In this document: positions 20,799-34,980 of the stretch, one piece after another | Numbering within the stretch: position 1 is the first letter of the stretch | Layout of the letters: every line of letters starts with the position of its first letter | Source: Propionicimonas sp. | Lineage (GTDB): Bacteria; Actinomycetota; Actinomycetes; Propionibacteriales; Propionibacteriaceae | DNA length: 48,946 bases | Direction: 5' to 3' | NCBI GenBank assembly: GCA_013791955.1 | Contig: VMSW01000009.1 | Span: 1 to 48,946 of the forward strand | Position numbers and translations under genes: made by a program | The notes under the pieces: model-generated | Told to the model about the DNA's origin: nothing | The model's database searches: none | Seen by the model: only the letters and a program-made list of their open reading frames with translations

Positions 20799-21301
20799 CG
20801 TGACTCTGAGTCTCCTGTTCATGGCTCCAGTTCTGGCTGGCGACGGTCGTGATCGAGATCGACTGTGACCTAGTCCCACACGTGTCGGGTGGAGCGCAAC
20901 CGACGCGCGAACGCCTAGCCAAGAGGTTACCCGCTGAACGCCGCCCGCTGAGCATGCAGGCCCACCGGCCCACAGACTGGACGCCAGTGCCCAAACTGTG
21001 GTCGCCCGGGCCCAACCGAGACTGAGAAGTTGGTTCCCGGCCGCTCACGCAAGCCCGGCTGGGAGAATCCCCCAATTGTCGAAATTTGGGCCCTAATGCG
21101 GCGAATCCCGCACTGACTACGGGTCACCCTTTTGGGGGACTAATTCGCGGGCATCTCGGAGATCATCAATTCAAGTAGAAAGAATACTCATCCGGTGATA
21201 CCGTGAGGGGCATACCCGTTCGGGGGGAACGGCGGGCTACCTACCCGTCATTCGCGGGTCGTATGACCACATGTATACGACCGCACCTAAGGCAGGAAGC
21301 C
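20799..21301. other. Divergent intergenic region with a structured leader before the GH71-like gene
   Basis: About 500 bases between ppdK (leftward) and the glycanase gene (rightward). The half next to ppdK shows nothing I can name. Near the glycanase three short inverted repeats follow each other: CCGTTC/GAACGG (21216-21232), ACCCG/CGGGT (21243-21259) and GGTCGTAT/ATACGACC (21257-21282). A GCAGGAAG ribosome site follows before the ATG at 21302. Confidence 0.5.
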
Positions 21302-23257
21302 ATGCCCCCCACGCTTGGCGGAACCCGCATTCGTCGTTCCCTAACGGCGTTTGCCTCCGCACTGGCAGTCCTGACGCTCACGTTCGTGGGCGCTCTGCCC
21401 ACAGCCACGCGCAGTTCTGCGTCCCCCCTGGTCACGCGCAACACCAACGTCGGCGTGGCAGCCAACGCCTACACCGACAGCAAGCATCGCAAAACCAGCC
21501 ACCGCAACGTCAGCACCCCTCGGGTGAACAAGTCGCGCTACGCCAGCTACTTCGCCTTCCCAGCCGTCCCACTGAACCCCGGCGAGGCCATCAGTCGCGC
21601 AGCCGTGGTCGTCAACATCCGCTCCGCCAGCCACCCCAGCCAGGGCGTTTTCACAGTCCGTGCGGTGACCTCCGGCTGGAACGGTGGCAAGCTCAGCTAC
21701 AAGAACCGGCCGAAGCTCGGCCCGGTCCTTGGCACCGCCCGAATCAAGGCAAAAGGCCTCCTCACCATCACCTTGGACGCCAAGGTGGCCGCCCCGTACC
21801 TGGCCAAAGGCGCCCGGCTCCAGATCACCCGCACCGGGTCGAAGTACCTGGTCAAGCTGGCCAGCAAGCCCACCTATCTCAAGCTCAGCATCGGTGACGC
21901 GCAAGCCGTAGCAAGCGAACAGGCCAAGCAACCCCAACAGACAGCCGCTGACGCGAAGATCACTGGCAAGCCCGTTTTCGCCCATTACTTCCCGCCCTAC
22001 CCGATCTCACTAGACAATCAGTTGGGCACCAAGGACTACTACGCCGTCAACTACCTGAGCCCGACCGGCGAGAACAGCAAGTTCGCCTGGTGCGGCGGCC
22101 TCCTGCGGGATCGTCCATTGACCCGTTCGCCATTGTCAGGAGACTTCTGGCTTGCCGATCTGCGCACCGAGGTAGCCCAGGCCAAGAAGGCAGGGCTCAG
22201 CGGTTTCGCCGTCGACATCCTCACCTTCAACACCTCCGACCGCAACTGGGTTTTGGTCGAAAAGCTGCTGCAGGCCGCTCAAGAGGCCGGTGACTTCAAG
22301 ATCATGCTGCAGCCCGACATGTCCGCCCTCAGTGGGGTCAGCACCACCCAGTTCGCCACCGCCATTGCTTCCTTGGCCAAATACGGTTCGGCTTACCGAC
22401 TCGGCTCCGGCGCCGTCGTGGTCTCGCCGTTCTTGGCCGAGAACAAGACGCCCTCCTGGTATAGCGACGCGCTAGCGAAGCTGAAGTCAACCCACAAAGT
22501 CTCCGTGGCGCTCCTGCCCCTGTTCCTGGACGCCTCCAACATGAACAGCTACAAAGATGTGAGCATCGGCTTCGGGAACTGGGGCGTCCGGAACGTGGCC
22601 GCAGCCACCACCTGGCCCAACTGGACATCGAAGGCACATGCCTTGGGCAAGATGTGGATGGAGCCGGTCTCAGTTCAGGACGTCCGCCCGAACCAGTCGA
22701 TCTATGACGAGGCCAGCAACACTGGGACCCTCGCCGCGACCTGGAACCGTGCCATCAGCCAGGGCGCTGACCTAGTCCTGCTAACCACTTGGAACGACTA
22801 CTCGGAATCGACCAGCTTCGCCCCCTCGTCCGATCATGGTTGGGCGTTTCTGAACCTGAACCGGTACTTCGTCAAGAAGTTCCAAACCGGCTCAGGTCAG
22901 ATCGGGACCGAACAGGTAATCATCAGTCACCGGATTCAGCGAGCCACTACCGCCGTTAGTTACTCCGGCACCATGAAGCTGCGCTCGGGATCCACCGCCG
23001 CTCGCGACAAGATCGAAGTTGTCACCATGCTCGCCGCCGCGAGCACGGTCTCGGTCGTCATCGCTGGCGAGACCCACACCTACCAGGCCGCTGCTGGCCT
23101 CTACACCAAACTGTTTGACCTGCAGGCTGGCACCTTCACTGCCACCGTAACCAGGTCTGGCGCGACGGTAGCCACCGTCACCACCAAAGACGCGGTCAGC
23201 TTCGCCACCACGGCGCAGCAGGATCTCAGCTATCACGCTGTGACCAGTGACCGCTAG
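21302..23257 (+). CDS. Secreted GH71-like glycoside hydrolase (putative alpha-1,3-glucanase) with N-terminal carbohydrate-binding-like domain
   Basis: 651 aa from the ATG at 21302, chosen because GCAGGAAG precedes it and a signal peptide begins there (RIRRSLTAFASALAVLTLTF). Residues about 42-198 form a beta-sandwich like DNRLRE/CBM96 modules (SRYASYFAFPAVPLNPGEAI; VTSGWNGG). Residues about 222-535 resemble GH71: KPVFAHYFPPYPIS, AGLSGFAVDILTF, FKIMLQPDMSAL, LLTTWNDYSESTS. GH71 enzymes cut alpha-1,3-glucan in fungi and some bacteria. A final beta domain spans about 540-651. The polysaccharide locus begins just after it, so a role in remodelling the cell's own polymer is an alternative to feeding. 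Substrate is inference. Confidence 0.8.
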   Translation: MPPTLGGTRIRRSLTAFASALAVLTLTFVGALPTATRSSASPLVTRNTNVGVAANAYTDSKHRKTSHRNVSTPRVNKSRYASYFAFPAVPLNPGEAISRAAVVVNIRSASHPSQGVFTVRAVTSGWNGGKLSYKNRPKLGPVLGTARIKAKGLLTITLDAKVAAPYLAKGARLQITRTGSKYLVKLASKPTYLKLSIGDAQAVASEQAKQPQQTAADAKITGKPVFAHYFPPYPISLDNQLGTKDYYAVNYLSPTGENSKFAWCGGLLRDRPLTRSPLSGDFWLADLRTEVAQAKKAGLSGFAVDILTFNTSDRNWVLVEKLLQAAQEAGDFKIMLQPDMSALSGVSTTQFATAIASLAKYGSAYRLGSGAVVVSPFLAENKTPSWYSDALAKLKSTHKVSVALLPLFLDASNMNSYKDVSIGFGNWGVRNVAAATTWPNWTSKAHALGKMWMEPVSVQDVRPNQSIYDEASNTGTLAATWNRAISQGADLVLLTTWNDYSESTSFAPSSDHGWAFLNLNRYFVKKFQTGSGQIGTEQVIISHRIQRATTAVSYSGTMKLRSGSTAARDKIEVVTMLAAASTVSVVIAGETHTYQAAAGLYTKLFDLQAGTFTATVTRSGATVATVTTKDAVSFATTAQQDLSYHAVTSDR

Positions 23258-23331: not shown

Positions 23332-24591
23332 TCAGGTGATCTCGTCCGGGCCCATTACCGGTGCCGATGCCGATGCCGGAATCGGTTGCCCCAAACAGCG
23401 GATCGCGACGGTCAAGCTGATCACCAACTGAACCAGCAACCCCACGACGATCGCCACCAGCGCACCCATCACTCCCCAGCCCCAGGCACCTACGGCCACC
23501 AACGGCATGGCCACCACAGTTCCGGTCAGGGTAGAGACCGCCAGTGCGCGCATCTTCCGGTACGTGGCCAGCACAGCGTGCCCAAGACTGGAGACGTAGA
23601 AGCTCAGCCCCAACACAACCGCCATCAGGGCCACCACTGGGGTGGGTGGGGTCAGTTGTCCGTCGCCGAGCAGGTGCAGCGCCCACCCGCCGAGGGCGAA
23701 GGTCACTGCGGCGATGAGGATGGCAAGACCAGCAGCCCCCACCATGACTTTGCGCGCTCGTGCTGCGGGATCTTCGGCCTGCGGCACCCAGCCCTGCATC
23801 ACCGCCACGATGGGGCTCAGCGATACCTGGAGTTGGCGCTGAAGTTTGTCTACCAGCGCGAATACCGGCTGAGCCGTCGGCGCCGTCATCGTCACGATCG
23901 CCAGCGGCAGCGCCGTGAACAGCGAGCCGCCCAGGTTCGAAGCCACCCCACTGCGGTAGTCACGCAGCAGCTGACCCAAGCCAGGCAAGGCCGGGCGATT
24001 ACCGCGCCCGTAGCCGAGGGACTGCAAAATCCAGGCGGCAGAAAACCCAAAGGCAATAACCTGCCCGATGCCCTGCCAGGCGAGGCCGATGACAGCGTCA
24101 GAACCGGTCTCCATCGCCGCGATCCCGACAACCGTGAACGCCACCCGGGGCAGCGTTTCGACCAGCATCAACACATATGGCCTAGACAGCCCGATGAAGA
24201 ACCAGTTTGAGGTGAGTCCCGGCAAGACAGCCACCAATGCCCCCACCACAGCGAGATCCGGGCGATAGTTGGCCAGCAACACCGAGGGCACGATCACCGC
24301 CAACCCCACCGGAAGAACCAAGAAGGCGCGCACTTTCACCGAGCTGAGGAACTCGAGCAGGCGGGCAGCGGTATCGCCGCGAGCGATCTCAGCCGGACCG
24401 GAAATGCCCCAACCGTAGGCAACCACCATCGCGCCGATTGCCCCGAAATTCTGACCAAGCACGATCATGCCGAACGCGCCTGCCCCGCTGGAGCGCACCA
24501 TCGCCGGAATCGCCACGAGCGCTGCCAGCGCTAACAGCGCCATAGACAGCCCGAAGCCGAGGAGCTTATTCAGCCCGGACAGCCCTCGCAT
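23332..24591 (-). CDS. Wzx-like polysaccharide flippase (oligosaccharide repeat-unit exporter family)
   Basis: 419 aa from the ATG at 24591 (MRGLSGLNKLLGFG, with GGGAAGGG upstream); the long open frame beyond it is the shadow of the acetyltransferase gene on the other strand. It has about 12 hydrophobic helices and the arrangement of MOP-superfamily flippases: an early LLALAALVAIPAMVRSSGAGAFG, a middle FALVDKLQRQLQVSLSPIVAVM, and paired helices near the end. It would move lipid-linked repeat units from the inner to the outer face of the membrane. It sits at the left end of the surface-polysaccharide locus and diverges from the acetyltransferase gene. Confidence 0.85.
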   Translation of the reverse strand: MRGLSGLNKLLGFGLSMALLALAALVAIPAMVRSSGAGAFGMIVLGQNFGAIGAMVVAYGWGISGPAEIARGDTAARLLEFLSSVKVRAFLVLPVGLAVIVPSVLLANYRPDLAVVGALVAVLPGLTSNWFFIGLSRPYVLMLVETLPRVAFTVVGIAAMETGSDAVIGLAWQGIGQVIAFGFSAAWILQSLGYGRGNRPALPGLGQLLRDYRSGVASNLGGSLFTALPLAIVTMTAPTAQPVFALVDKLQRQLQVSLSPIVAVMQGWVPQAEDPAARARKVMVGAAGLAILIAAVTFALGGWALHLLGDGQLTPPTPVVALMAVVLGLSFYVSSLGHAVLATYRKMRALAVSTLTGTVVAMPLVAVGAWGWGVMGALVAIVVGLLVQLVISLTVAIRCLGQPIPASASAPVMGPDEIT

Positions 24592-24753
24592 AGCTTCGCC
24601 CTTCCCCACAATGCCCAGTGAAGGCGTGGCCCCAGACCCTGGACGGCGGTGGCTCGATCTTCCCACACCGGAATCAGCAAACCCTGGGCAATCGGTCGAC
24701 ACCAAAACGGGCTGCGCATCCTTACCGCTAACCCTCCAGCCAACCCACCGGCC

Positions 24754-24759
24754 TAAGAT
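24754..24759 (+). promoter_or_regulatory. -10 box TAAGAT of a leaderless promoter
   Basis: TAAGAT ends 6 nt before the ATG at 24766 and there is no ribosome site. It would drive the acetyltransferase and GT4 pair. Confidence 0.65.
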
Positions 24760-24765
24760 GTCGCC

Positions 24766-25317
24766 ATGGCGGCGCGATTCGACCTGGCCGGCTTCACCGG
24801 GGCCGGGTACTCCCGAGGCGGTTCGGCGATCAAACAGGTGGCGTGGTTGTTGACGTCCGGACTGATAACCAGCCACTGGTGGTGCCCGCCGTCGGTTCGA
24901 GCGAAGCTGCTGAGCGCTTTCGGTGCAGCCCTGGGCCGCAATGTCCTGATCCGGCATCGAGTGCGGATCCACTGGCCTTGGAAGCTCACCGTTGGCGACA
25001 ACTCCTGGATCGGTGAGGGCACCTGGATCCTCAACCTTGAACCGGTCCACATCGGCGCCAACACCTGCATCTCTCAAGACGTCTTCATCTGCACCGGCAG
25101 CCATGATCACAACTCGCCTACCTTCGAGTTCGACAATGCGCCGATAACCATCGGCGACGGCGCCTGGGTGGCGGCCCGGGCCACCGTGCTGCGCGGGGTA
25201 CGGATCGGCGACAACGCCACCGTGGGCGCCAACGCCCTGGTGGTCAAAGACGTGCCCGACGACCAGGTGGTGTTGGCCCCGGTGGCCCGCGATGTTCGGC
25301 GCGAAGAACGCGGCTGA
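24766..25317 (+). CDS. WcaF-like hexapeptide-repeat acetyltransferase
   Basis: 183 aa. The left-handed beta-helix repeats are obvious from about residue 58: GRNVLIRHRVRIHWP, LTVGDNSWIGEG, VHIGANTCISQDVFICTGSHDH, ITIGDGAWVAARATVLRGVRIGDNATVGANALVV. The CTGSHDHNSPTF block with the catalytic His matches colanic-acid WcaF-type O-acetyltransferases. It probably acetylates a sugar of the surface polymer using acetyl-CoA. The next gene starts on the base after its stop codon, so they form an operon. Confidence 0.93.
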   Translation: MAARFDLAGFTGAGYSRGGSAIKQVAWLLTSGLITSHWWCPPSVRAKLLSAFGAALGRNVLIRHRVRIHWPWKLTVGDNSWIGEGTWILNLEPVHIGANTCISQDVFICTGSHDHNSPTFEFDNAPITIGDGAWVAARATVLRGVRIGDNATVGANALVVKDVPDDQVVLAPVARDVRREERG

Positions 25318-26433
25318 ATGCGGATCATCTCGGTCGTCAGCCTGATTACTCCCGATGGCGCTTACGGCGGCCCCGTTCGGGTAGCTGTCAACCAGGCCAA
25401 GGCACTGATCGCGCTAGGCCATGACGTGCGGATTGCCGCAGCCACCAGGGGTTTTGATCAGCCACCGACCGAACTGGATCAGGTGCCGTTGCACCTGTTC
25501 GACGCCCGAACAGTCCTGCCCGGCACCGGTTTCGCCGGGATCACCTCCCCTGGCCTGCTGCGCTGGCTCCCTACCGCACTGCCCAGCGCCGATGTGGTTC
25601 ACCTGCACGCCGCCCGGGATCTGATCACCTTGCCAGCCGCCGCCTTGGCGCGGCGGGCGAAGGTGCCCTATTTCCTGCAAACTCACGGAATGATCGACCC
25701 GTCAACCAACCCGCTGGCCAAACCTCTGGACGCTTTCCTCACCAAAGGCTTGCTGCACGATGCTGCCGGCGTTTTCCACCTCACCGATCTCGAACGGGCC
25801 CAACTGCTGGAGGTTGCCGGTGAGCTCAACTTCCTGCCGCTGGCCAACGGCGTACCGGTGGCGGACTACACCGCAGCCCCCCAACCGCCTGAGGTGCTCT
25901 ATCTGGCCCGCCTGGCACCTCGGAAGCGGCCGCTGGTCTTCATCGAAGCGGCCCGCAGACTCCAGCCGGACTTCCCGACCGCCCGCTTCAGCCTGGTCGG
26001 ACCGGACGAGGGCGAGGGCCCCGCGGTGCGCGCCGCGATTGATGCTGCTCGCGCCGAGGGCGTGGCAATCGAGTGGAGCGGCGGCCTTTCACCGGAACTG
26101 ACCCTTGACCGGCTGCGGGATTGCTCGATCTACGTGCTGCCGAGTGTGAACGAGCCGTATCCGATGTCGGTTCTAGAGGCGCTAAGCGTTGGGCGTCCGG
26201 TGGTCATTACTGACACCTGCGGCTTGGCTGACCTCGTGAAACGCCACCAGGCCGGTGCGGTGGTTGATCACGGCGTCGACTCCCTGGTAACGGCGATCTC
26301 CCAACTCCTCAGCGATCCGAGCGCCGCCGTGACCAGCGGTGAACGCGGCCGGGCAGCCGTCGGCAAAGAACTCAGTATGGCTGCGATCGCAGCCCAGCTT
26401 GCAGCCCACTATTCGGCGGCTCTGTCTTCCTGA
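25318..26433 (+). CDS. GT4-family glycosyltransferase
   Basis: 371 aa. It begins directly after the acetyltransferase stop codon. The N-terminal Rossmann domain has the loop DGAYGGPVRVAVNQAKAL and HLHAARDLITLPAA; FLQTHGMIDPSTNP is typical of GT4 enzymes that build O-antigen or exopolysaccharide. The C-terminal donor domain has YLARLAPRKRPLVFIEAA and the nucleotide-sugar site NEPYPMSVLEALSVGRPVV (E-x7-E type). It adds one sugar to the lipid-linked repeat unit in the cytoplasm. Donor and linkage unknown. Its last 62 bases overlap the 3' end of the opposing polymerase gene. Confidence 0.92.
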   Translation: MRIISVVSLITPDGAYGGPVRVAVNQAKALIALGHDVRIAAATRGFDQPPTELDQVPLHLFDARTVLPGTGFAGITSPGLLRWLPTALPSADVVHLHAARDLITLPAAALARRAKVPYFLQTHGMIDPSTNPLAKPLDAFLTKGLLHDAAGVFHLTDLERAQLLEVAGELNFLPLANGVPVADYTAAPQPPEVLYLARLAPRKRPLVFIEAARRLQPDFPTARFSLVGPDEGEGPAVRAAIDAARAEGVAIEWSGGLSPELTLDRLRDCSIYVLPSVNEPYPMSVLEALSVGRPVVITDTCGLADLVKRHQAGAVVDHGVDSLVTAISQLLSDPSAAVTSGERGRAAVGKELSMAAIAAQLAAHYSAALSS

Positions 26434-27823
26434 CCCAGAACAGGCACCCCAGGGCCACCACCAGTGCGCCGGTGGCCTGCAGCAGCGAGCCCCGCATCAG
26501 AATCAGCGTGTACACCGGGAGAATCGCGCCGAGCAGGCCCCACCAGCCACCGTGGTAATGAGCCGGCACCATCCGCCGGTCCATCGAAGCCAACAGCGGC
26601 CCCAGCAGCAGGAAGCCAACCCCAACCGCGATCACGCCAGCGTTGACCAGCAGTTCGGCCCAAATGGGGGCCGAGAGGTTACCGAAGGAATAGCCACGGA
26701 AGTCGGCCAGCATGATGCCGGTGTCGGTTGGCTTGTCCGGCCAGATCGAGCGGGGCACCCAGAACAGCAAGCTGCCAAGGATCTGCCGGAACGGCTGCAT
26801 CGAATCGCTGATGCTGAACGAATATGCATTGGCGATCTGCCAGAACGAGTCATAGTCGGCGTTGCCAGCGTATTCGCTGAAGAACCCCGAGCGCGGGTCA
26901 AGATCCACCACGTCACGGCGAAAGGCGTCGGCGATCGGAAAGAGGAAGAGCATCGCCGCGATCATCCCGCCCATGGCCATCCGGGCCCGAGCTCGAGTGC
27001 GGGTGATGCCAGCGTAGACAAGGATCGCGAAGGCGACCGTGCCGAAGGTATAACGAGCTGACGAGATGGGGCTGGCCACGACCATCAGGATCATGATTCC
27101 CGCCAGCACCAACAGCCCCAGACCGGCCCGTCCAGGGTCGCCCTTCGGTAACCCGCGACGCAACTGCCCGATTGCCCCGGTTGCTACCAGGATTGGGTAG
27201 ATGGACAGGGCCCCGATCAGTGCCCGGACTGCAGGTTCCCCCCAAGCCGCGGTGACGATCTGGTCGGCTGAATCGCGGCTGACGAAGGCGACTCCCAGCC
27301 CCACCTTGCTTAGGTAGTAGCCAGCCAGCCCGATCCCGGCCAGAAAGAGCAGCCCGGCCCGGACGCCACTGATCCCACTTGGTCGAAGTCGAGTCTCGGT
27401 ATGTCGCTGGCCGAAGAACATCCACAAACCACGGCCAACCTCATAACAAACCACCCCGAGCAGCACGATGTAGGCGGTTGGGAGATCCAAGCTAGGACTC
27501 ATCCCTGGAGTGGTGCCGGCGATATCGTTTGAGCGCATCTGAACGCTCGCGGCCACTCCCATGAATATGTAGGTGTAGAGCCAGAAGAAGAAGTCAAATA
27601 GTTTGGGGATCCCGCTCACCCAAAGTGCCGAAAGCCTGACTCCGCCCCAGCAGGCGATCAGTATGGTGATCGTCCAGCCCTGACTCCGACCGGTGTCGGA
27701 AACTGCAAGTAGCAGTGCCCCAGGCAGGCCAACTGCGAGCACAGCGACAGAAAACACCATCGCCAGGATCCGCCAACCAGCTCCCCAGGTGTCCTCATCC
27801 TCGGAAGCCACGGCATCCTGCAC
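26372..27823 (-). CDS. Wzy-like polysaccharide polymerase, polytopic membrane protein
   Basis: 483 aa from the GTG at 27823, 8 nt after AGGGAGG; the open frame extends a few codons further to a TTG that overlaps that site. It has about 12 hydrophobic helices and a large soluble loop in the second half (about 310-380, with DPRSGFFSEYAGNADYDSFW and FWVPRSIWPDKPTDTG). The PRSIWPDKP-type loop and the overall layout match O-antigen polymerases/EpsG-like proteins. Polymerases have low sequence identity, so the assignment leans on topology and place in the locus. The C-terminal 20 residues are encoded antisense to the end of the GT4 gene. Confidence 0.75.
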   Translation of the reverse strand: MQDAVASEDEDTWGAGWRILAMVFSVAVLAVGLPGALLLAVSDTGRSQGWTITILIACWGGVRLSALWVSGIPKLFDFFFWLYTYIFMGVAASVQMRSNDIAGTTPGMSPSLDLPTAYIVLLGVVCYEVGRGLWMFFGQRHTETRLRPSGISGVRAGLLFLAGIGLAGYYLSKVGLGVAFVSRDSADQIVTAAWGEPAVRALIGALSIYPILVATGAIGQLRRGLPKGDPGRAGLGLLVLAGIMILMVVASPISSARYTFGTVAFAILVYAGITRTRARARMAMGGMIAAMLFLFPIADAFRRDVVDLDPRSGFFSEYAGNADYDSFWQIANAYSFSISDSMQPFRQILGSLLFWVPRSIWPDKPTDTGIMLADFRGYSFGNLSAPIWAELLVNAGVIAVGVGFLLLGPLLASMDRRMVPAHYHGGWWGLLGAILPVYTLILMRGSLLQATGALVVALGCLFWVRKTEPPNSGLQAGLRSQPY

Positions 27824-27917
27824 CAAGTCAGCCTCCCTCAACTACTGGCATTGGGTTCGGTCAGCGTACCGCCGAACCGCTATTCTTGGGCGTCAGGTTC
27901 CGGCAAAGGGGGATTCA

Positions 27918-30011
27918 ATGGGGAGCCAGGAAGTCCTTCGCATGCTCCGAAGGCGATGGCTACTCATCGTCCTCGCTGGCCTGCTCGGCACGACCCTCGC
28001 CCTGATCGTGGCCGGGGTGCAGCCGCCGAAGTACACCGCCTCGGTTGATGTCTTCGTCACCGTAACCAGCGGCCAGTCCACCGGCGATCTGGCCCAGGGC
28101 AGCGCTTTCTCCCAGGATCAAGCCCGCAACTTCGCCGCAGTTGTGCCCAAGGAGATCGTTCTCGGCCCGGTGATTAAGCAGTACGGGCTGAACATTTCCC
28201 TGGACGACATGCGCAAGAACGTCGATGTGGACGTTCAGTTGAACACGTCAGTGATCACGATCAAGGTCACTGATCACGACCCGGCACTTTCGGCCGCTTT
28301 GGCAAATGCGGTGGCAAGTCAGCTGTCAGCGGCCGTGCTCCAACTAAGCCCGACCGTCAGCGACCTCAAGGGCGCACCAGTTCGCGCCGAGGTGATCGAA
28401 GCGGCTGGCGTTCCGGTCAAGCCCTCCTCACCCAATATTCCCCTTTACGCGATGATGGGCATGCTGGCTGGCCTGGTGCTTTCGATCGGGTACCTGGTGA
28501 TTGTTGAACTGGTCGTGGCCCGGGTCGATTCGACCGAACAAGTTGAGGCCCTCACCGGCTCGGTGGTCCTGGCCAGCGTCCCCCGGGATCGCAAGGTGGC
28601 CCGACATCCGATCGCAGTCACCGCGCTGCCGCTATCGCTGCGGGCTGAGTCCATCCGCCACGTCCGCACCGCTTTGAAATTCCTGCCCGGCGAGGCGAAC
28701 CAGACTTTCGTAATCACTTCCTCGGTTAGCGGTGAGGGCAAGAGCACCACCGCCGCCAACATCGCGGCCGCTTTCGCCGCCGAAGGCCTGTCCACCTGCC
28801 TGGTCGAAGCCGATCTCCGCCGTCCCCGACTCGAGGGGCTACTGGATCTCACCGGCGGCCCCGGCCTCAGCGACATCGTCGTCGGCCAATCCCAGATTGA
28901 GGACACCGTCCAAACCTGGGGTCCGGATCAGCTCCAGGTGATCCTGGTGGGGACCGTCCCGCCGAATGCCAGCGAACTGCTCGGCTCCACCCGCGGTCAG
29001 GAGGCGCTGCGATCGATCACCGAGAAATTTGAAGTCACCATCATCGACACTCCACCGCTGACCGCAGTGACCGATGCTGCGATCATCGGCCGGATGTTCG
29101 GTGGCGTGGTGATGGTCGTGGGCGGCGGCAAGGTGCGTACCAGCGAACTGCGGCAGGCCATGGGTGCCCTCGCCGTGGCCGATGTGCCGATTCGGGGCAC
29201 CGTGATGAACCTGGCCAAGGACGATGCCTCTCGCCCTTACGCCTACACCTATTCCGACCGGGCCCGCCAAACCAAGCTGGCCGATCTGCTGCCACAGGGC
29301 TGGCGGCCGGTGATCAAAGCTGCTGCCGTCGTCGTGGCCACTATTGCGGTGGCCCTGACTGCGGTCGTGATGACCAACCGGCAGGTGTCGGCACAGCCGA
29401 CAGCTGGCACCACCCCCACCGCAGCGATCCTCAGCCCGACGCCCAGCCAGGCCAGCCCGAAGGCCGTTTTCATCGGGGATTCGCTGGTAGCCGGAGTGGA
29501 AGTCACCGAGAAGCAGCGCTGGACGACGCTCGTGGCAGCGTCCATGGGGTGGGAAGAGGTGAACCTTGGCCGCGGCGACACTGGCTACGTCACCTCCTCG
29601 GATGTAGCTGGTTGCGGCCTCCAGTACTGCCCGACTTTCGTCGAGATGGCCGAGCAGGCCATTGCGACCAACCCGGACATCGTGGTCATCTCCGGTGGTC
29701 AAAATGACGGCACCAAAGCCGTCCGCAGCGCGGCCAACAAGCTGTTCGCCGCCCTGCGCAAGGCGCTACCGAATGCTCGAATCTACGTGATCTCGCCGTT
29801 GTGGCAATCCACTCAGGTCCCGCCGTCCAGCCTCCAACAGATCGGTGCTGAAGTTAAAGCGGCAGCTGCGGCCACTGGAGTCACCTACGTCGAGGTTGGC
29901 AATCCGCTCCAAGATCAACCAGAGCTCTTCACCGCCGACGGCACCCGCCCAACGGCGGCCGGGTACAAGAAGCTCGCCACCGTGATCACCGCTGCGATCA
30001 GGAAGAGCTGA
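27918..30011 (+). CDS. Wzz/BY-kinase (chain-length regulator and tyrosine autokinase) fused to an extracytoplasmic SGNH-hydrolase-like domain
   Basis: 697 aa from the ATG at 27918, behind AAGGGGGA. TM1 (about 14-33) and TM2 (179-200) bracket a Wzz-type outer loop. The cytoplasmic tyrosine kinase has Walker A SGEGKST (271-277), Walker A' VEADLRRPRL (296-305) and Walker B IIDTPP (375-380); Y441, Y443 and Y445 (PYAYTYSD) are likely autophosphorylation sites. Then come TM3 (about 466-487), a Thr/Pro linker and an SGNH-like domain (514-697) with G-D-S (520-522), GRGDTGY (551-557), GGQND (593-597) and D674. Where these enzymes have DGxHP, this protein has DGTRP, so the catalytic His is Arg677. Kinase domains normally end the protein; the extra domain is unusual. 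It controls polymer length; the extra domain might bind or de-acylate polymer. Confidence 0.9.
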   Translation: MGSQEVLRMLRRRWLLIVLAGLLGTTLALIVAGVQPPKYTASVDVFVTVTSGQSTGDLAQGSAFSQDQARNFAAVVPKEIVLGPVIKQYGLNISLDDMRKNVDVDVQLNTSVITIKVTDHDPALSAALANAVASQLSAAVLQLSPTVSDLKGAPVRAEVIEAAGVPVKPSSPNIPLYAMMGMLAGLVLSIGYLVIVELVVARVDSTEQVEALTGSVVLASVPRDRKVARHPIAVTALPLSLRAESIRHVRTALKFLPGEANQTFVITSSVSGEGKSTTAANIAAAFAAEGLSTCLVEADLRRPRLEGLLDLTGGPGLSDIVVGQSQIEDTVQTWGPDQLQVILVGTVPPNASELLGSTRGQEALRSITEKFEVTIIDTPPLTAVTDAAIIGRMFGGVVMVVGGGKVRTSELRQAMGALAVADVPIRGTVMNLAKDDASRPYAYTYSDRARQTKLADLLPQGWRPVIKAAAVVVATIAVALTAVVMTNRQVSAQPTAGTTPTAAILSPTPSQASPKAVFIGDSLVAGVEVTEKQRWTTLVAASMGWEEVNLGRGDTGYVTSSDVAGCGLQYCPTFVEMAEQAIATNPDIVVISGGQNDGTKAVRSAANKLFAALRKALPNARIYVISPLWQSTQVPPSSLQQIGAEVKAAAAATGVTYVEVGNPLQDQPELFTADGTRPTAAGYKKLATVITAAIRKS

Positions 30012-30013
30012 GC

Positions 30014-30619
30014 ATGAAGAACTTCCAAGCCAACAGCCCGGGAATCTTGTTCGTCTGCACCGGCAACATCGCCCGGTCGCCGTTCATGGCGCTCACCCTG
30101 GCCAATCGACTCGCTGGCACTTCGGCAGTGGGGCTTCCGGTGACCTCAGCCGGCACCTACGCGGTTACCGGTTCGCGAATCCACCCGGAGGTGGCCGCCG
30201 AACTGCAGGCTCGAGGCATCGAGACCAGCGATTTTGTGGCGACTCAACTCACCGCTGAACGCGTCCTCAAAGCTGGGCTGATTCTCACTGCCTGCCGCGA
30301 GCATCGCCGCCTGGTAGCCAGACTGGCCCCGCAACGCCGCAACGTGACCTTCACGCTGCGGCAGTTCGCCCGGCTGATTCAGCTCGATCCGGTGGGTGAG
30401 ATTCGGATGGCCACCGACGGGCCACTGGAAGCGCTGGCCCAACTGGCCAACCGAAACCGCGGACTCTCCAGCGGCAGCCAGGACGACGACGACATCATCG
30501 ATCCAGTGAACGCACCGCGGCGGCAGTTCGCTACCGCCTTCGCAGCGATGGATCCGGCAATCAGCCTGGTAGGCGACCTGGTCTCCGGGCTGCGAGATCA
30601 GCCCCGCCGGCCCGCCTGA
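30014..30619 (+). CDS. Low-molecular-weight protein tyrosine phosphatase
   Basis: 201 aa. The P-loop FVCTGNIARSPF gives catalytic C15 and R21, and the general acid is probably D163 in DDDDIIDP. It starts 2 nt after the BY-kinase stop, behind AGGAAGAG, so the two are co-transcribed. By analogy with Wzb/Wzc it should dephosphorylate the tyrosine cluster of the kinase and so switch polymerisation. It is somewhat longer than the 150-residue norm, with a loop rich in Gln, Ser and Asp (about 150-160). Confidence 0.94.
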   Translation: MKNFQANSPGILFVCTGNIARSPFMALTLANRLAGTSAVGLPVTSAGTYAVTGSRIHPEVAAELQARGIETSDFVATQLTAERVLKAGLILTACREHRRLVARLAPQRRNVTFTLRQFARLIQLDPVGEIRMATDGPLEALAQLANRNRGLSSGSQDDDDIIDPVNAPRRQFATAFAAMDPAISLVGDLVSGLRDQPRRPA

Positions 30620-31881: not shown

Positions 31882-32259
31882 AAACTCAAGCCCTTGTCAC
31901 CAGCGGCGACCCCGGTCGATCTTTCGTGATGTCCCCCGATCGGTGCACCCCAAGGACGCAGCTAGTGCGCCTATCCCGTTACCTGTGGTACCCCGAATGA
32001 CATCGATCTGACCTACGCGAGACCCAGCTTCCCCCCGAAAGCGAGCCACGCATCGGGCTGACGAGTCCATTATGGCCGCCGCGCTCAGGCATTTCCAGCT
32101 ACGTCGCCATCCATTCCAAACTCAGGACAACTGCGCAGCCAGGTTGCACCATCAGGCCCGGCAGGCCAGACTAGTCAGCGGTGTCACCCGGCCGGGGGGC
32201 AGGGGCACCTCAGTCATCCGGGGGGTTTGACTGAACCGGAGGTCAGAGCCGGGGGGATC
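31882..32259. other. Gap of about 380 bases upstream of the initiating sugar transferase
   Basis: No gene is supported. The part near the downstream gene is G-rich and has an inverted repeat TCAGTCA/TGACTGA (32210-32216 and 32228-32234) that could act as an operator or 5'-leader hairpin. No convincing promoter boxes seen. The size suggests a regulated promoter. Confidence 0.4.
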
Positions 32260-33729
32260 ATGACCACTATTTCGGGGCACTTGGATTCTGTTGCTAGCGC
32301 AGCAGCCAAGTCTCGGCTTCCAGCCGTTGTGCTGTCGAAGCGACTGCAATTGACGTTTCTTTACTCCGCCGACTTCATCGTCATCGCCATCGCGTTGTTC
32401 ATTGCCGTAGTGACCCGTGGGCTGTTGCCCTTCCCGGGCCAGCCGGACACTGAACAGATCATGCGCACCACCGGCCCGCTGATCGCGGTGGCTTGGCTGG
32501 TCATGCTTCGCGTATTTAGCGCTGACGCCCTGCGCCATCTACGCGCCGGCGTCACCGAATACAAGCGAGTGATCATGGCCTCTTCGGCCATGGCAGCAAC
32601 CGTAGGCATCACCTGCTACCTGCTGAAGTTCGACTTTCCGCGGGCCGCGTTCGTGCTGATGTTCGCTTTCGGCACCCTCGGCCTGCTAGCGGCGCGCTGG
32701 TCGCGGCGCAAGGTGATGGGTGCCATTCATAGCCGCGGCGCCCTGACCACGCCGTTGCTGGTCGCTGGCGACAGTGGCCACGTTGACGCGATCGCCAAGG
32801 TGTTACGGCGGGAGTCCTGGCTTGGCTACCGGGTGATTGGTGCGATTACCAGCGACCGGGTCCGCTACACCCCGGCCGGGCTACCGGTACTGGGTGCGCT
32901 CACCAACACCGTCGAGGTGATTGAGGAGCACGAGGCGTCCGCGGTGATCTTCGCTGAGGGTTCCTTCGCCTCACCGGCAGAGTTCCGCCGGATGGCCTGG
33001 CAGCTGGAGGAGCACGACATTCAGATGATCGTGGTCCCGGCGATCACCGACACCAGCGCCCAGCGGCTTGAGGTTCGTCCGGTCGCCGGTCTGCCCCTGG
33101 TGGACGTCGAGCGCCCCCAGGCCCTGGCCTCGCTGCGTTGGATCAAGCGGACCGCTGACGCGATCGGGGCAGCTCTGCTGCTGCTCGCCGCGGCCCCGGT
33201 GATGGCACTGGTGGCCCTGGCGATCAAGCTCGAAGACGGCGGTCCGGTTCTTTTCAAGCAGACCCGGGTTGGCCGCAAAGGCGAGCTGTTCGAATGCCTG
33301 AAGTTCCGCAGCATGGCGATGGACGCTGAAGAGCGCCTGGCCGAGTTGCAGCACTTGAACGAGGCCGCTGGGCCACTGTTCAAAATGACTGATGATCCCC
33401 GAATCACTCGGGTCGGCCGATTCATCCGCCGGTTCTCGATCGACGAGTTGCCTCAGTTCTGGAACGCCCTTGTTGGCGACATGAGTCTCGTTGGGCCGCG
33501 TCCGGCGCTTCCCGACGAAGTTGCCCGCTACGATTTCGACGCACGTCGTCGTCTCGATGCTCGCCCCGGACTCACCGGCCTGTGGCAGGTTTCGGGACGC
33601 TCCGATTTGTCCTGGGAGGACTCCGTCCGACTGGACATTTACTACGTGGACAACTGGTCAGTAGTGCAAGACCTGATGATCTTGGCAAAAACCGCTCGAG
33701 CGGTGTTGCTGCCATCCGGCGCCTACTGA
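32260..33729 (+). CDS. Polyprenyl glycosylphosphotransferase (initiating sugar transferase, WbaP/WcaJ type)
   Basis: 489 aa from the ATG at 32260, preferred over an in-frame TTG at 32227. It starts the repeat unit by moving a sugar 1-phosphate onto undecaprenyl phosphate. Four N-terminal helices (about 28-145) are followed by a CoA-binding-like domain (about 160-280). The catalytic part has the re-entrant helix IGAALLLLAAAPVMALVALAI, KLEDGGPVLFKQTRVGRKG, FECLKFRSM, and the DE motif RFSIDELPQFWNALVGDMSLV followed by GPRP. A strong terminator follows it, so it is probably a single-gene transcript within the locus. Confidence 0.95.
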   Translation: MTTISGHLDSVASAAAKSRLPAVVLSKRLQLTFLYSADFIVIAIALFIAVVTRGLLPFPGQPDTEQIMRTTGPLIAVAWLVMLRVFSADALRHLRAGVTEYKRVIMASSAMAATVGITCYLLKFDFPRAAFVLMFAFGTLGLLAARWSRRKVMGAIHSRGALTTPLLVAGDSGHVDAIAKVLRRESWLGYRVIGAITSDRVRYTPAGLPVLGALTNTVEVIEEHEASAVIFAEGSFASPAEFRRMAWQLEEHDIQMIVVPAITDTSAQRLEVRPVAGLPLVDVERPQALASLRWIKRTADAIGAALLLLAAAPVMALVALAIKLEDGGPVLFKQTRVGRKGELFECLKFRSMAMDAEERLAELQHLNEAAGPLFKMTDDPRITRVGRFIRRFSIDELPQFWNALVGDMSLVGPRPALPDEVARYDFDARRRLDARPGLTGLWQVSGRSDLSWEDSVRLDIYYVDNWSVVQDLMILAKTARAVLLPSGAY

Positions 33730-33808: not shown

Positions 33809-33832
33809 ATGTTGAGGCGAGGGGCCCGATGA
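33809..33832 (+). CDS. Seven-codon leader ORF, overlapping the next gene
   Basis: ATG TTG AGG CGA GGG GCC CGA TGA encodes MLRRGAR. Its stop overlaps the ATG of the downstream membrane-protein gene (ATGA), and GAGGGG, the ribosome site for that gene, lies inside it. This arrangement would let ribosomes that load on a leaderless RNA re-initiate on the main gene. Coding status is inference. Confidence 0.4.
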   Translation: MLRRGAR

Positions 33833-34980
33833 GGGTAGAACGACCGCTGCCAATAGCGCGGATGTTCGTGGCGTTCGCCGTCCTCGCTATCAGCGCCTAC
33901 GTGGCCATCGATGCCTACGCCACAACGATCGCCCGCGGCGGTAACGATCATCAGACCGGCGACTGGCTGATCAGCTACCCGGGCATGTTCGTCCGCCGGG
34001 GCATGTTCGGCGAGCTGCTGTTCGGCATCGCTCCGCCGGGGCAGGCAACCTTATGGGTGCTGTTTGCGATCCAGGTGGCCTTGTACGTGCCGTTGATCGC
34101 CTTCTTCATCGAGTACCTATTCCGGGCCAACTTCTCCTGGTCAGCGATCGCGCTGGCATGTTCGCCAGCCGCGCTGGGTTTCATCGGCTGGGATCCGCTA
34201 GGCGGCTTCCGCAAGGAGACCCTCGGATTCCTAGCCCTGGTCCTGCTGGCGCTGGCTCGCCGCCGGGTGAGCTCCCCGCTGCGCGGGCTACTGCTTGCTT
34301 CCTCGCTGGCGATCTGGACCATCGGGGTGTTCTCGTGGGAATCGCTGGCCTTTCTGCTGCCTGGCGTCGGCTTCCTGCTGCTAGCCGATCGGGAGCTGCC
34401 GCTGCGGCGCACCCTGGCTTCGGTCTACGCGCTGATCGGGTTGGCCGCCTTCGGCAGCTCGGTGCTCTTCCACGGCAACAAGGACACGCCAGGGTTGCTT
34501 TGCGGGGCGATCGTCCAGCAGGGCTTGGGGACGAATCTGTGTACCGGCGCCATCGCCTGGATTGGCCGAGATCTAAGCGCGAGCCTGGAGTTGGTCGACA
34601 AGTACGTCCCCGTACACAGTGGCTATCTGGTGATGCTGGCCCTAGCGGTGCTGCCGATCGCGCTTAGCCCGTGGCTGCGCCGCTACTGGGCCTGGGGTCT
34701 GGCCGCGCTAATCGGAATGGCGCCGCTGTTCGTCCTTGGCATCGACTATGGCCGCTGGATTCACATCCTGGTGATCGAGCTGGCCATTTGCATGATCGCC
34801 GGGAACCGCGCCCTGATCGAATCAAAGCTGTGGAATCCGCTCTCGGTCGCCCTTTTCGTCAGCCTCTGGGGTATTCCCCACGCCGCCCCCACCGTGCCCT
34901 GGGCAGCCGGCTGGCCGTTCAAGGGTCTGGCGGCGACGCTGATCAACTGGGCCCAATCCGGCCTGCTGAGGGTCTGGTAG
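33829..34980 (+). CDS. Polytopic membrane protein of unknown function in the polysaccharide locus
   Basis: 383 aa, with about ten hydrophobic helices spread over the length and short loops. Notable loops are [20 protein letters not shown] followed by [16 protein letters not shown] (about 30-65), the conserved-looking [15 protein letters not shown] (about 119-133), [15 protein letters not shown] (213-227) and [10 protein letters not shown] near 304. The charged GRWIH and RKE positions recall GT-C or polymerase-like membrane enzymes, but I recognise no family. It could be a second polymerase or a lipid-linked sugar transferase. Its start is coupled to the 7-codon leader. Confidence 0.7.

What the first reader, a model, noticed from the sequence alone, without database searches (positions are those of the whole stretch)
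27918..30011. Tyrosine autokinase/chain-length regulator with an outer SGNH domain whose catalytic His is Arg
BY-kinases normally end soon after the tyrosine cluster. This one adds a third membrane helix and an outward SGNH-hydrolase-like domain. The domain keeps the GDS nucleophile motif, the GRGD Gly, the GGQND Asn and D674, but the His of DGxHP is Arg677 (a CAC to CGC single-base change would do it). One protein would thus link cytoplasmic phosphorylation to a polymer-binding or polymer-modifying domain outside. If the Arg is fixed, the domain may be a sensor or lectin; if not, it is a hydrolase coupled to chain-length control. The acetyltransferase WcaF-like gene in the same locus makes removal of acetyl groups a natural guess for the ancestral activity.
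Basis: partly seen in the sequence, partly recalled or inferred. Interest (0 to 1): 0.75.

Follow-up and report, generated by a model that had tools for sequence, protein, structure and literature searches.

The report
Capsule kinase with a fading-enzyme outer arm
A bacterial kinase of a sugar-coat gene cluster carries an extra outer domain descended from an ester-cutting enzyme; in this family the catalytic histidine has changed several times while the fold is kept, which suggests the arm may now bind something outside the cell rather than cut it.

Summary
Window 27918-30011 encodes one 697-aa protein: Wzz-type outer loop, tyrosine autokinase, Tyr cluster, third membrane helix, and an outer SGNH domain with Ser522, Gly553, Asn596 and Asp674 but Arg677 for the catalytic His. 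Ten genomes carry the fusion in one polysaccharide locus, each followed by a tyrosine phosphatase gene. The Arg is not fixed: residue 677 is His in 4 of 10, Arg 2, Thr 2, Ala 2, with at least five changes. Of 33 columns conserved in intact stand-alone relatives, His677 changed most; Ser522 and a Cys pair never changed. Of 31 free-standing relatives in the family, 15 are encoded divergently within 3 kb of an autokinase gene; a 15-member clade has lost the block II Gly throughout, Asn in 14, and His in all 14 readable. Against this, one kinase inside the fused clade lacks the domain, and a relatedness-aware test found no link between kinase neighbourhood and lost catalysis. Best reading: an outer arm kept mainly for binding, its esterase activity dispensable. 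Ligand and signalling are inferred. My searches found no paper on this pairing.

The parts
27918..30011 (+). fused BY-kinase / chain-length regulator / SGNH protein, 697 aa
   Evidence: same frame in nine other genomes
27963..28019 (+). membrane helix 1 (about residues 16-34)
   Evidence: hydropathy
28020..28451 (+). outer Wzz-type loop (about residues 35-178)
   Evidence: PF02706 on residues 5-87; limits from the helices
28461..28517 (+). membrane helix 2 (about residues 182-200)
   Evidence: hydropathy
28518..29255 (+). cytoplasmic tyrosine autokinase domain with P-loop SGEGKSTT (residues 271-278) and DTPP (377-380)
   Evidence: TIGR01007 on residues 245-443; conserved columns
29238..29252 (+). 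tyrosine cluster YAYTY (residues 441-445); Tyr443 and Tyr445 invariant in all ten fused proteins
29319..29375 (+). third membrane helix (about residues 468-486)
   Evidence: helix 460-487 in the low-confidence full-length model
29376..29462 (+). low-complexity outer linker (about residues 487-515)
   Evidence: alignment; pLDDT about 60-65 in its first 20 residues
29463..30008 (+). outer SGNH domain (residues 516-697)
   Evidence: PF13472; model with mean pLDDT 89.5; Foldseek GDSL hits
29481..29483 (+). Ser522, block I nucleophile position, kept in 10 of 10 fused proteins
29574..29576 (+). Gly553, block II oxyanion position, kept in 8 of 10
29613..29630 (+). Cys566 and Cys571, probable disulfide; present in all 13 intact, 10 fused and 14 degenerate rows (the pair was a condition for entering the tree set)
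   Evidence: bond not seen directly
29703..29705 (+). Asn596, block III oxyanion position, kept in 7 of 10
29937..29939 (+). Asp674, block V acid position, kept in 9 of 10
29946..29948 (+). Arg677 (CGC) at the catalytic His position; His in 4 of 10 fused proteins
30014..30619 (+). low-molecular-weight tyrosine phosphatase gene directly downstream
   Evidence: PF01451 67.6 bits; present in 10 of 10 fused loci
26372..27841 (-). Wzy-like multi-pass membrane protein, divergent neighbour; no Pfam or NCBIfam match; the name is by position and hydropathy only
   Evidence: matched in all ten fused loci
24766..25317 (+). WcaF-like O-acetyltransferase gene
   Evidence: matched in all ten fused loci
32227..33729 (+). 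WbaP-type sugar transferase gene of the same locus
   Evidence: PF02397 226.5 bits

Best explanation
The protein is the chain-length regulator and tyrosine autokinase of a Wzx/Wzy-type polysaccharide locus. It has gained a third membrane helix shortly behind its tyrosine cluster, which carries an SGNH-fold domain outside the membrane. Shown by sequence: the architecture, its conservation in ten genomes, repeated change of the catalytic His with fold positions and the Cys pair kept, and free-standing relatives beside other autokinase genes. Inferred: (1) the window's copy is catalytically dead or nearly so, because the block V His is the general base of SGNH enzymes (general knowledge); (2) the pocket, or another face of the domain, is kept to bind the growing glycan or lipid-linked repeat unit near the polymerase, as an outer recognition arm; (3) since the arm hangs on the helix that follows the tyrosine cluster, binding could change how that tail reaches a neighbouring kinase, and so the phosphorylation cycle set against the phosphatase next door. 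In His-bearing sister species the same arm may still deacylate what it binds. Step 3 is speculation.
For: Fusion in ten genomes, with 65-93% identity to the window in seven of the genus and 49% in two of another genus. Residue 677: H 4, R 2, T 2, A 2 of ten; four His/not-His and five residue-level changes on a tree built without the catalytic columns. Of 33 columns at least 90% identical in 13 intact stand-alone relatives, His677 has most changes in the fused clade (5); Ser522, Trp545, Asn549, Gly556, Tyr557, Cys566, Cys571, Gly593, Gly594 and Asp597 have none. dN/dS of the SGNH part is 0.115, 0.126 and 0.154 in three sister pairs, each with one His and one non-His member, and about 0.20-0.25 in four other fused pairs tried; kinase part 0.017-0.042 in the three sister pairs (ratios). 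The domain lies beside an autokinase without fusion too: 16 of 31 stand-alone matches in the family are within 3 kb of one, 15 of them divergent. The nearest kin of the fused kinases (L035, L073, L209) have a separate divergent SGNH gene. A second kinase lineage is paired with a 15-member SGNH clade that lacks the His in 14 of 14 readable rows and has the block II Gly replaced in 15 of 15. Precedents: in CtCE2 one SGNH active site both cuts esters and binds cellulose (PMC2661963, abstract and passages), and CtCE2 structures 2wao and 2wab are among the Foldseek hits; Wzc has an outer capsule-binding domain (PMC12881504, abstract).
Against: No ligand, binding or phosphorylation data. The independent-pairs test gives no support that linkage to a kinase goes with loss of catalysis (2 usable pairs on supported branches, 9 on all): 23 of 30 linked and 10 of 21 unlinked rows are broken, and 14 of the 23 belong to one clade. 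The SGNH part evolves several times faster than the kinase, and four pairs of the degenerate stand-alone clade show dN/dS of 0.32-0.62, so relaxed constraint is plausible. G074 (L034/L060) has the kinase, the third helix and most of the same locus but no SGNH domain, nested in the fused clade, so the arm is dispensable there. In CtCE2 the His itself aids binding: H791A weakened it about 20-fold. Six of ten copies lack the His, but all ten keep Ser522, which a pure binder need not.
Confidence: 0.5

Rival explanations
1. The domain is an ordinary secreted esterase that was fused by chance and is now decaying; His loss is the first step of neutral loss, and G074 shows the end point.
For: SGNH part evolves faster than the kinase; five residue-level changes at the His; domain absent in G074 inside the fused clade; degenerate stand-alone clade with dN/dS 0.32-0.62 in four pairs; the branch to the His-less L066 has 12 SGNH changes against 4 on its His-bearing sister.
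Against: dN/dS 0.115-0.154 in sister pairs that include a His-less copy; Cys pair, GDS, GG and N549/L550/G556/Y557 positions unchanged in ten of ten; frames intact in all ten; the degenerate stand-alone clade is spread over 15 rows from 14 genomes and keeps a GGxAD-type motif in 14 of 15.
Confidence: 0.25
2. The domain is a protein-protein docking or assembly part: it meets the polymerase or another outer partner and does not bind glycan.
For: A fold kept without its catalytic base; fixed association with one locus and with the Wzy-like neighbour in all ten fused genomes.
Against: Ser522 kept in ten of ten and Asn596 in seven of ten suggest that the pocket still matters; no partner was identified.
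Confidence: 0.15
3. The window's domain is still a hydrolase or acyltransferase by a non-canonical route.
For: Ser522, Gly553, Asn596 and Asp674 all present. SGNH enzymes without the block V Asp are known (review PMC9487903, passages).
Against: Changing the His to Ala abolished activity in SrL (PMC10779480, abstract) and CtCE2 (PMC2661963, passages). Arg, Thr and Ala share no general-base chemistry.
Confidence: 0.08

Closest known systems
Wzc-type BY-kinases (E. coli Wzc; polysaccharide co-polymerase with C-terminal kinase)
   Same: Wzz-type loop, P-loop autokinase, tyrosine cluster, phosphatase neighbour, Wzx/Wzy-type locus. [quoted passage not shown]
   Different: Wzc's tyrosine-rich segment is its C-terminus; here a third helix and a 180-aa outer SGNH domain follow it, so the tail is held at both ends.
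CtCE2 (Clostridium thermocellum, carbohydrate esterase family 2)
   Same: SGNH active site used for non-catalytic glycan binding next to another enzyme module (PMC2661963, abstract and passages); among the Foldseek hits.
   Different: CtCE2 keeps Ser and His and is an active esterase; it is joined to a cellulase, not to a kinase.
SGNH-acyltransferase-3 fusions such as OatA (family named in a section heading of PMC9487903; OatA from recall)
   Same: SGNH domain tethered outside the membrane by a polytopic partner (recalled).
   Different: No acyltransferase-3 domain was reported by the Pfam scan of this protein.
Free-standing SGNH proteins with the same Cys pair (such as L050-L054, L067, L069-L079, L110-L122, L124)
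   Same: Same domain, 24-43% identical to the window's in the rows aligned; many lie beside a BY-kinase gene.
   Different: Separate genes; some with an intact site, some wholly degenerate.

Membership tests
BY-kinase / tyrosine autokinase (TIGR01007) | profile match over the kinase domain | tested here: met
   144.5 bits against a cut-off of 108.05
BY-kinase / tyrosine autokinase (TIGR01007) | P-loop, second Walker motif and DTPP | tested here: met
   SGEGKSTT, VEADLRRP and DTPP, most positions invariant; that these define the family is recalled
BY-kinase / tyrosine autokinase (TIGR01007) | tyrosine cluster after the kinase domain | tested here: met
   YAYTY 441-445; Tyr443 and Tyr445 invariant in ten of ten
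BY-kinase / tyrosine autokinase (TIGR01007) | protein ends soon after the cluster | tested here: not met
   about 250 more residues, with a helix and an SGNH domain; no such helix in 47 of 57 autokinases. I treat this as a typical, not a defining, feature
BY-kinase / tyrosine autokinase (TIGR01007) | autophosphorylation | not testable with these tools
   needs protein
SGNH/GDSL hydrolase fold | profile and fold | tested here: met
   PF13472 65.2 bits; Foldseek hits with E down to 6.6e-9
SGNH/GDSL hydrolase, catalytic residues | block I Ser, block II Gly, block III Asn, block V Asp | tested here: met
   Ser522, Gly553, Asn596, Asp674
SGNH/GDSL hydrolase, catalytic residues | block V His | tested here: not met
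   Arg677; so it has the fold but is not filed as an SGNH hydrolase
SGNH/GDSL hydrolase, catalytic residues | ester hydrolysis | not testable with these tools
   needs assay

The most novel reading that the evidence does not exclude
In Propionibacteriaceae and some other actinobacteria, SGNH-fold proteins that have lost catalysis serve as the outside ligand-binding subunit of BY-kinases, recruited in at least two kinase lineages, once as a fusion and once as a divergently encoded partner, so that the kinase and phosphatase cycle can read the polymer or its precursor outside the membrane.
Probability: 0.3. Interest if true: 0.75.

Novelty: new variant of a known kind. Interest (0 to 1): 0.55.

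Why it matters
What BY-kinases sense outside the cell, if anything, is to my knowledge an open question. A kinase whose third helix links its tyrosine tail to an outer pocket-bearing domain would make that testable. The family also shows an enzyme site losing its catalytic base between sister species while the fold stays constrained, with His-bearing and His-less natural pairs ready for comparison.

Tried and rejected
Frameshift or joined genes: rejected, one open frame in ten genomes. One-off sequencing error at 677: cannot be excluded for this one base, but five residue-level changes in the family make it immaterial to the main point. Link between kinase neighbourhood and loss of catalysis: 23 of 30 against 10 of 21 rows broken, not supported once relatedness is counted. 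Faster evolution on His-less branches: mixed; changes in the SGNH part, His-bearing against His-less sister, were 3 against 5, 7 against 7 and 4 against 12. A fused form elsewhere: none in 393 other genomes of a class sample at E up to 1e-90 (two candidates a genome were scored; 19 of the 393 had a kinase match); eight long SGNH frames outside the family (L203, L205, L210-L215) held no kinase match; other long frames were not all checked. Coordinates of the models were not available to me, so active-site geometry and the disulfide were not measured. Literature, numbers of papers holding the terms: 'BY-kinase' with 'SGNH' 0; 'bacterial tyrosine kinase', 'GDSL', 'exopolysaccharide' 0; 'BY-kinases', 'domain architecture', 'Actinobacteria', 'Wzz', three of four, 4; 'Wzc' with 'SGNH' 3; 'tyrosine autokinase' with 'GDSL' 1; these were seen as listings with abstract openings only and none is about such a fusion by title. 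'SGNH' with 'pseudoenzyme' 2, one of which I saw as abstract. PMC11556721 (a capsule esterase of Klebsiella; abstract) was looked at and not used.

Full report
WHAT IS THERE. Window 27918-30011 is one open frame of 697 aa. Pfam finds Wzz (residues 5-87), P-loop families (262-433) and Lipase_GDSL_2 (518-684, 65.2 bits against a cut-off of 32.9); NCBIfam gives the polysaccharide tyrosine autokinase profile at 144.5 bits against 108.05. Hydropathy puts membrane segments near residues 16, 182 and 468. The kinase should therefore face the cytoplasm and the SGNH domain the outside (inferred); an invariant Cys pair (566, 571) fits that. A tyrosine phosphatase gene follows at once (30014-30619). The window is contig C7 of a 3.1-Mb genome that is 99% complete. 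That it belongs to Propionibacteriaceae is inferred: contigs of its nearest kin have the lengths of contigs whose record titles name Propionibacteriaceae MAGs (two of these titles say only Actinobacteria or Propionibacteriales).

THE FUSION IS REAL AND OLD. Nine other genomes carry it: seven of the same genus (65-93% identity) and two of another genus of the family (49%). In the genus search 30 genomes were examined, the window's included; 23 had some match at E up to 1e-3, eight of them fused, the rest kinases alone, pieces of kinases or distant P-loop proteins. In the family 198 genomes were examined and 129 had a match at E up to 1e-10, ten of them fused, the window's included (weak matches were not all listed). 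Around the gene, WcaF-like, two glycosyltransferase and Wzy-like genes are matched in all ten; WbaP in eight (not seen in the two of the other genus), GDP-mannose dehydratase in eight (two contigs end before it) and GH71 in nine (not reached in G007) (on the stretches). The phosphatase follows in ten of ten. A class sample showed no other fused form in 393 further genomes, with two candidates scored per genome.

RESIDUE 677. It is Arg in the window and L009/L068, His in L003/L061, L005/L062, L006/L065 and L008/L064, Thr in L004/L063 and L007/L066, Ala in L032/L056 and L033/L135. In L009 the Asp and Asn are changed too (T and D); in L032 and L033 the Asn is Tyr and the block II Gly is Ala. On a tree of 51 SGNH domains built without the catalytic columns, the fused clade is one group (100/99) with four His/not-His changes and five by residue. 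Parsimony cannot tell gain from loss; I read them as losses because four fused copies have a complete site and regaining one seems less likely than losing it. The closest stand-alone group in that tree holds one intact (L050) and two broken (L051, L053) members, so the state at the root of the fused clade is not certain. Three sister pairs each contain one His-bearing and one His-less copy, with SGNH dN/dS of 0.115, 0.126 and 0.154, against 0.017-0.042 for the kinase; four other fused pairs gave 0.20-0.25 for SGNH (ratios). Of 33 columns at least 90% identical among 13 intact stand-alone proteins, His677 changed most in the fused clade (5), then residue 528 (3), 554 and 596 (2 each); seven changed once and 22 not at all. 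The intact set was chosen for having the His and the Cys pair, so their conservation there is by construction; the ranking of the His inside the fused clade is not.

STAND-ALONE RELATIVES. The same domain occurs as a separate protein, with a hydrophobic stretch in front in the complete rows printed (not scored for all). Of 31 such matches in the family at E up to 1e-12, 16 lie within 3 kb of an autokinase gene, 15 of them divergent (my count from those tables). Among 51 domains with the Cys pair, 18 have Ser, Asn, Asp and His all canonical; linked (fused or adjacent) 7 intact and 23 broken, unlinked 11 intact and 10 broken. Flanks of about 6-9 kb were seen where contigs allowed; some contigs are shorter, so 'unlinked' is less sure there. 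One clade of 15 (96/95) is degenerate: block II Gly is Pro in 14 and Gln in one, Asn is Ala in 14, the His is absent in all 14 that reach it, and Ser is kept in 9 of 15. Fourteen of these 15 sit beside an autokinase gene, and 13 have a phosphatase gene on the SGNH side. Their dN/dS is 0.32, 0.33 and 0.47 in three pairs and 0.62 in a fourth, short one, which is weaker constraint than in the fused clade. The independent-pairs test does not support a general link between kinase neighbourhood and loss of catalysis. Degenerate members without a kinase match in the stretch seen exist (L051, L053, L123, L129, L200).

KINASE TREE. The fused kinases form a group with L034 (quick method, SH-aLRT only, several long branches flagged elsewhere in it). 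Their nearest relatives, L035, L073 and L209, are autokinases with a separate divergent SGNH gene (that beside L035 is in L054); the site is intact beside L073 and L209 and degenerate in L054. The kinases paired with the degenerate SGNH clade form a second, separate group of 13. L034 (genome G074) has the third helix but no SGNH domain and groups with the fused L085 (95), so the domain was probably lost there. The third helix occurs in nine fused rows and L034, and in none of the other 47 of 57.

STRUCTURE. The SGNH domain alone is predicted well (mean pLDDT 89.5, 20-row alignment) and matches GDSL lipases, acetyl esterases, thioesterases and CE2 enzymes, 66 matches at E up to 1e-3. By sequence profile 27 PDB sequences match at E up to 1e-3. 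The full-length model is poor.

MECHANISM. The block V His is the general base of SGNH enzymes (general knowledge); in SrL (PMC10779480, abstract) and CtCE2 (PMC2661963, passages) changing it to Ala abolished activity. So the window's copy is most likely inactive; this is inference. CtCE2 shows that such a site can bind glycan without cutting it, though there the His helps binding. The recent Wza-Wzc structure reports an outer capsule-binding domain in Wzc (PMC12881504, abstract), so an outer binding part on this kind of kinase has a precedent. I therefore favour an outer recognition arm for polymer or repeat unit, placed so that it could act on the tyrosine tail through the third helix. The SGNH identity and the repeated change of the His are shown; the ligand and the signalling are not. 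The main rival is slow decay of a dispensable domain, which G074 and the faster evolution of the domain keep alive.

NOVELTY. The parts are known kinds; their combination and the degenerate partner clade are, as far as the searches go, not described in the open-access library searched. Most subscription papers are not in it.

Noticed in passing
L111:6047-8155 (-), and L110, L112-L115, L117-L119, L121, L122: Single stop-to-stop frames of 649-816 aa in 11 genomes join RmlC, RmlD and a tyrosine phosphatase (Pfam run on L111 only; the rest by BLAST and profile), next to the degenerate SGNH gene. A phosphatase fused to dTDP-rhamnose enzymes is, to my knowledge, unusual.
   Followed up: partly
L060:7807-9609 / L034 (genome G074): Autokinase with the third membrane helix and a short outer tail but no SGNH domain, in a largely matching locus; probably a secondary loss of the domain.
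   Followed up: partly
window 23332-25107 (-), 26375-27841 (-), 33829-34977 (+): Multi-pass membrane proteins of the locus, the first two Wzx-like and Wzy-like by position and hydropathy, with no Pfam or NCBIfam match. The first overlaps the WcaF-like gene, so its true start is probably further in.
   Followed up: no
L051:8141-8857 and L053:8054-8803: Stand-alone SGNH proteins with Ser changed to Ala as well as Asn and His lost, with no kinase gene within about 8 kb: degenerate members exist without a kinase neighbour.
   Followed up: partly
L204:1001-8811: Three SGNH genes around a distant autokinase-like gene in one genome of the class.
   Followed up: no
window 21203-23254 (+): A GH71-type glycoside hydrolase lies at one end of the conserved locus and is matched in nine of ten fused genomes, the window included, the tenth stretch not reaching it; its target might be the same polymer.
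   Followed up: no
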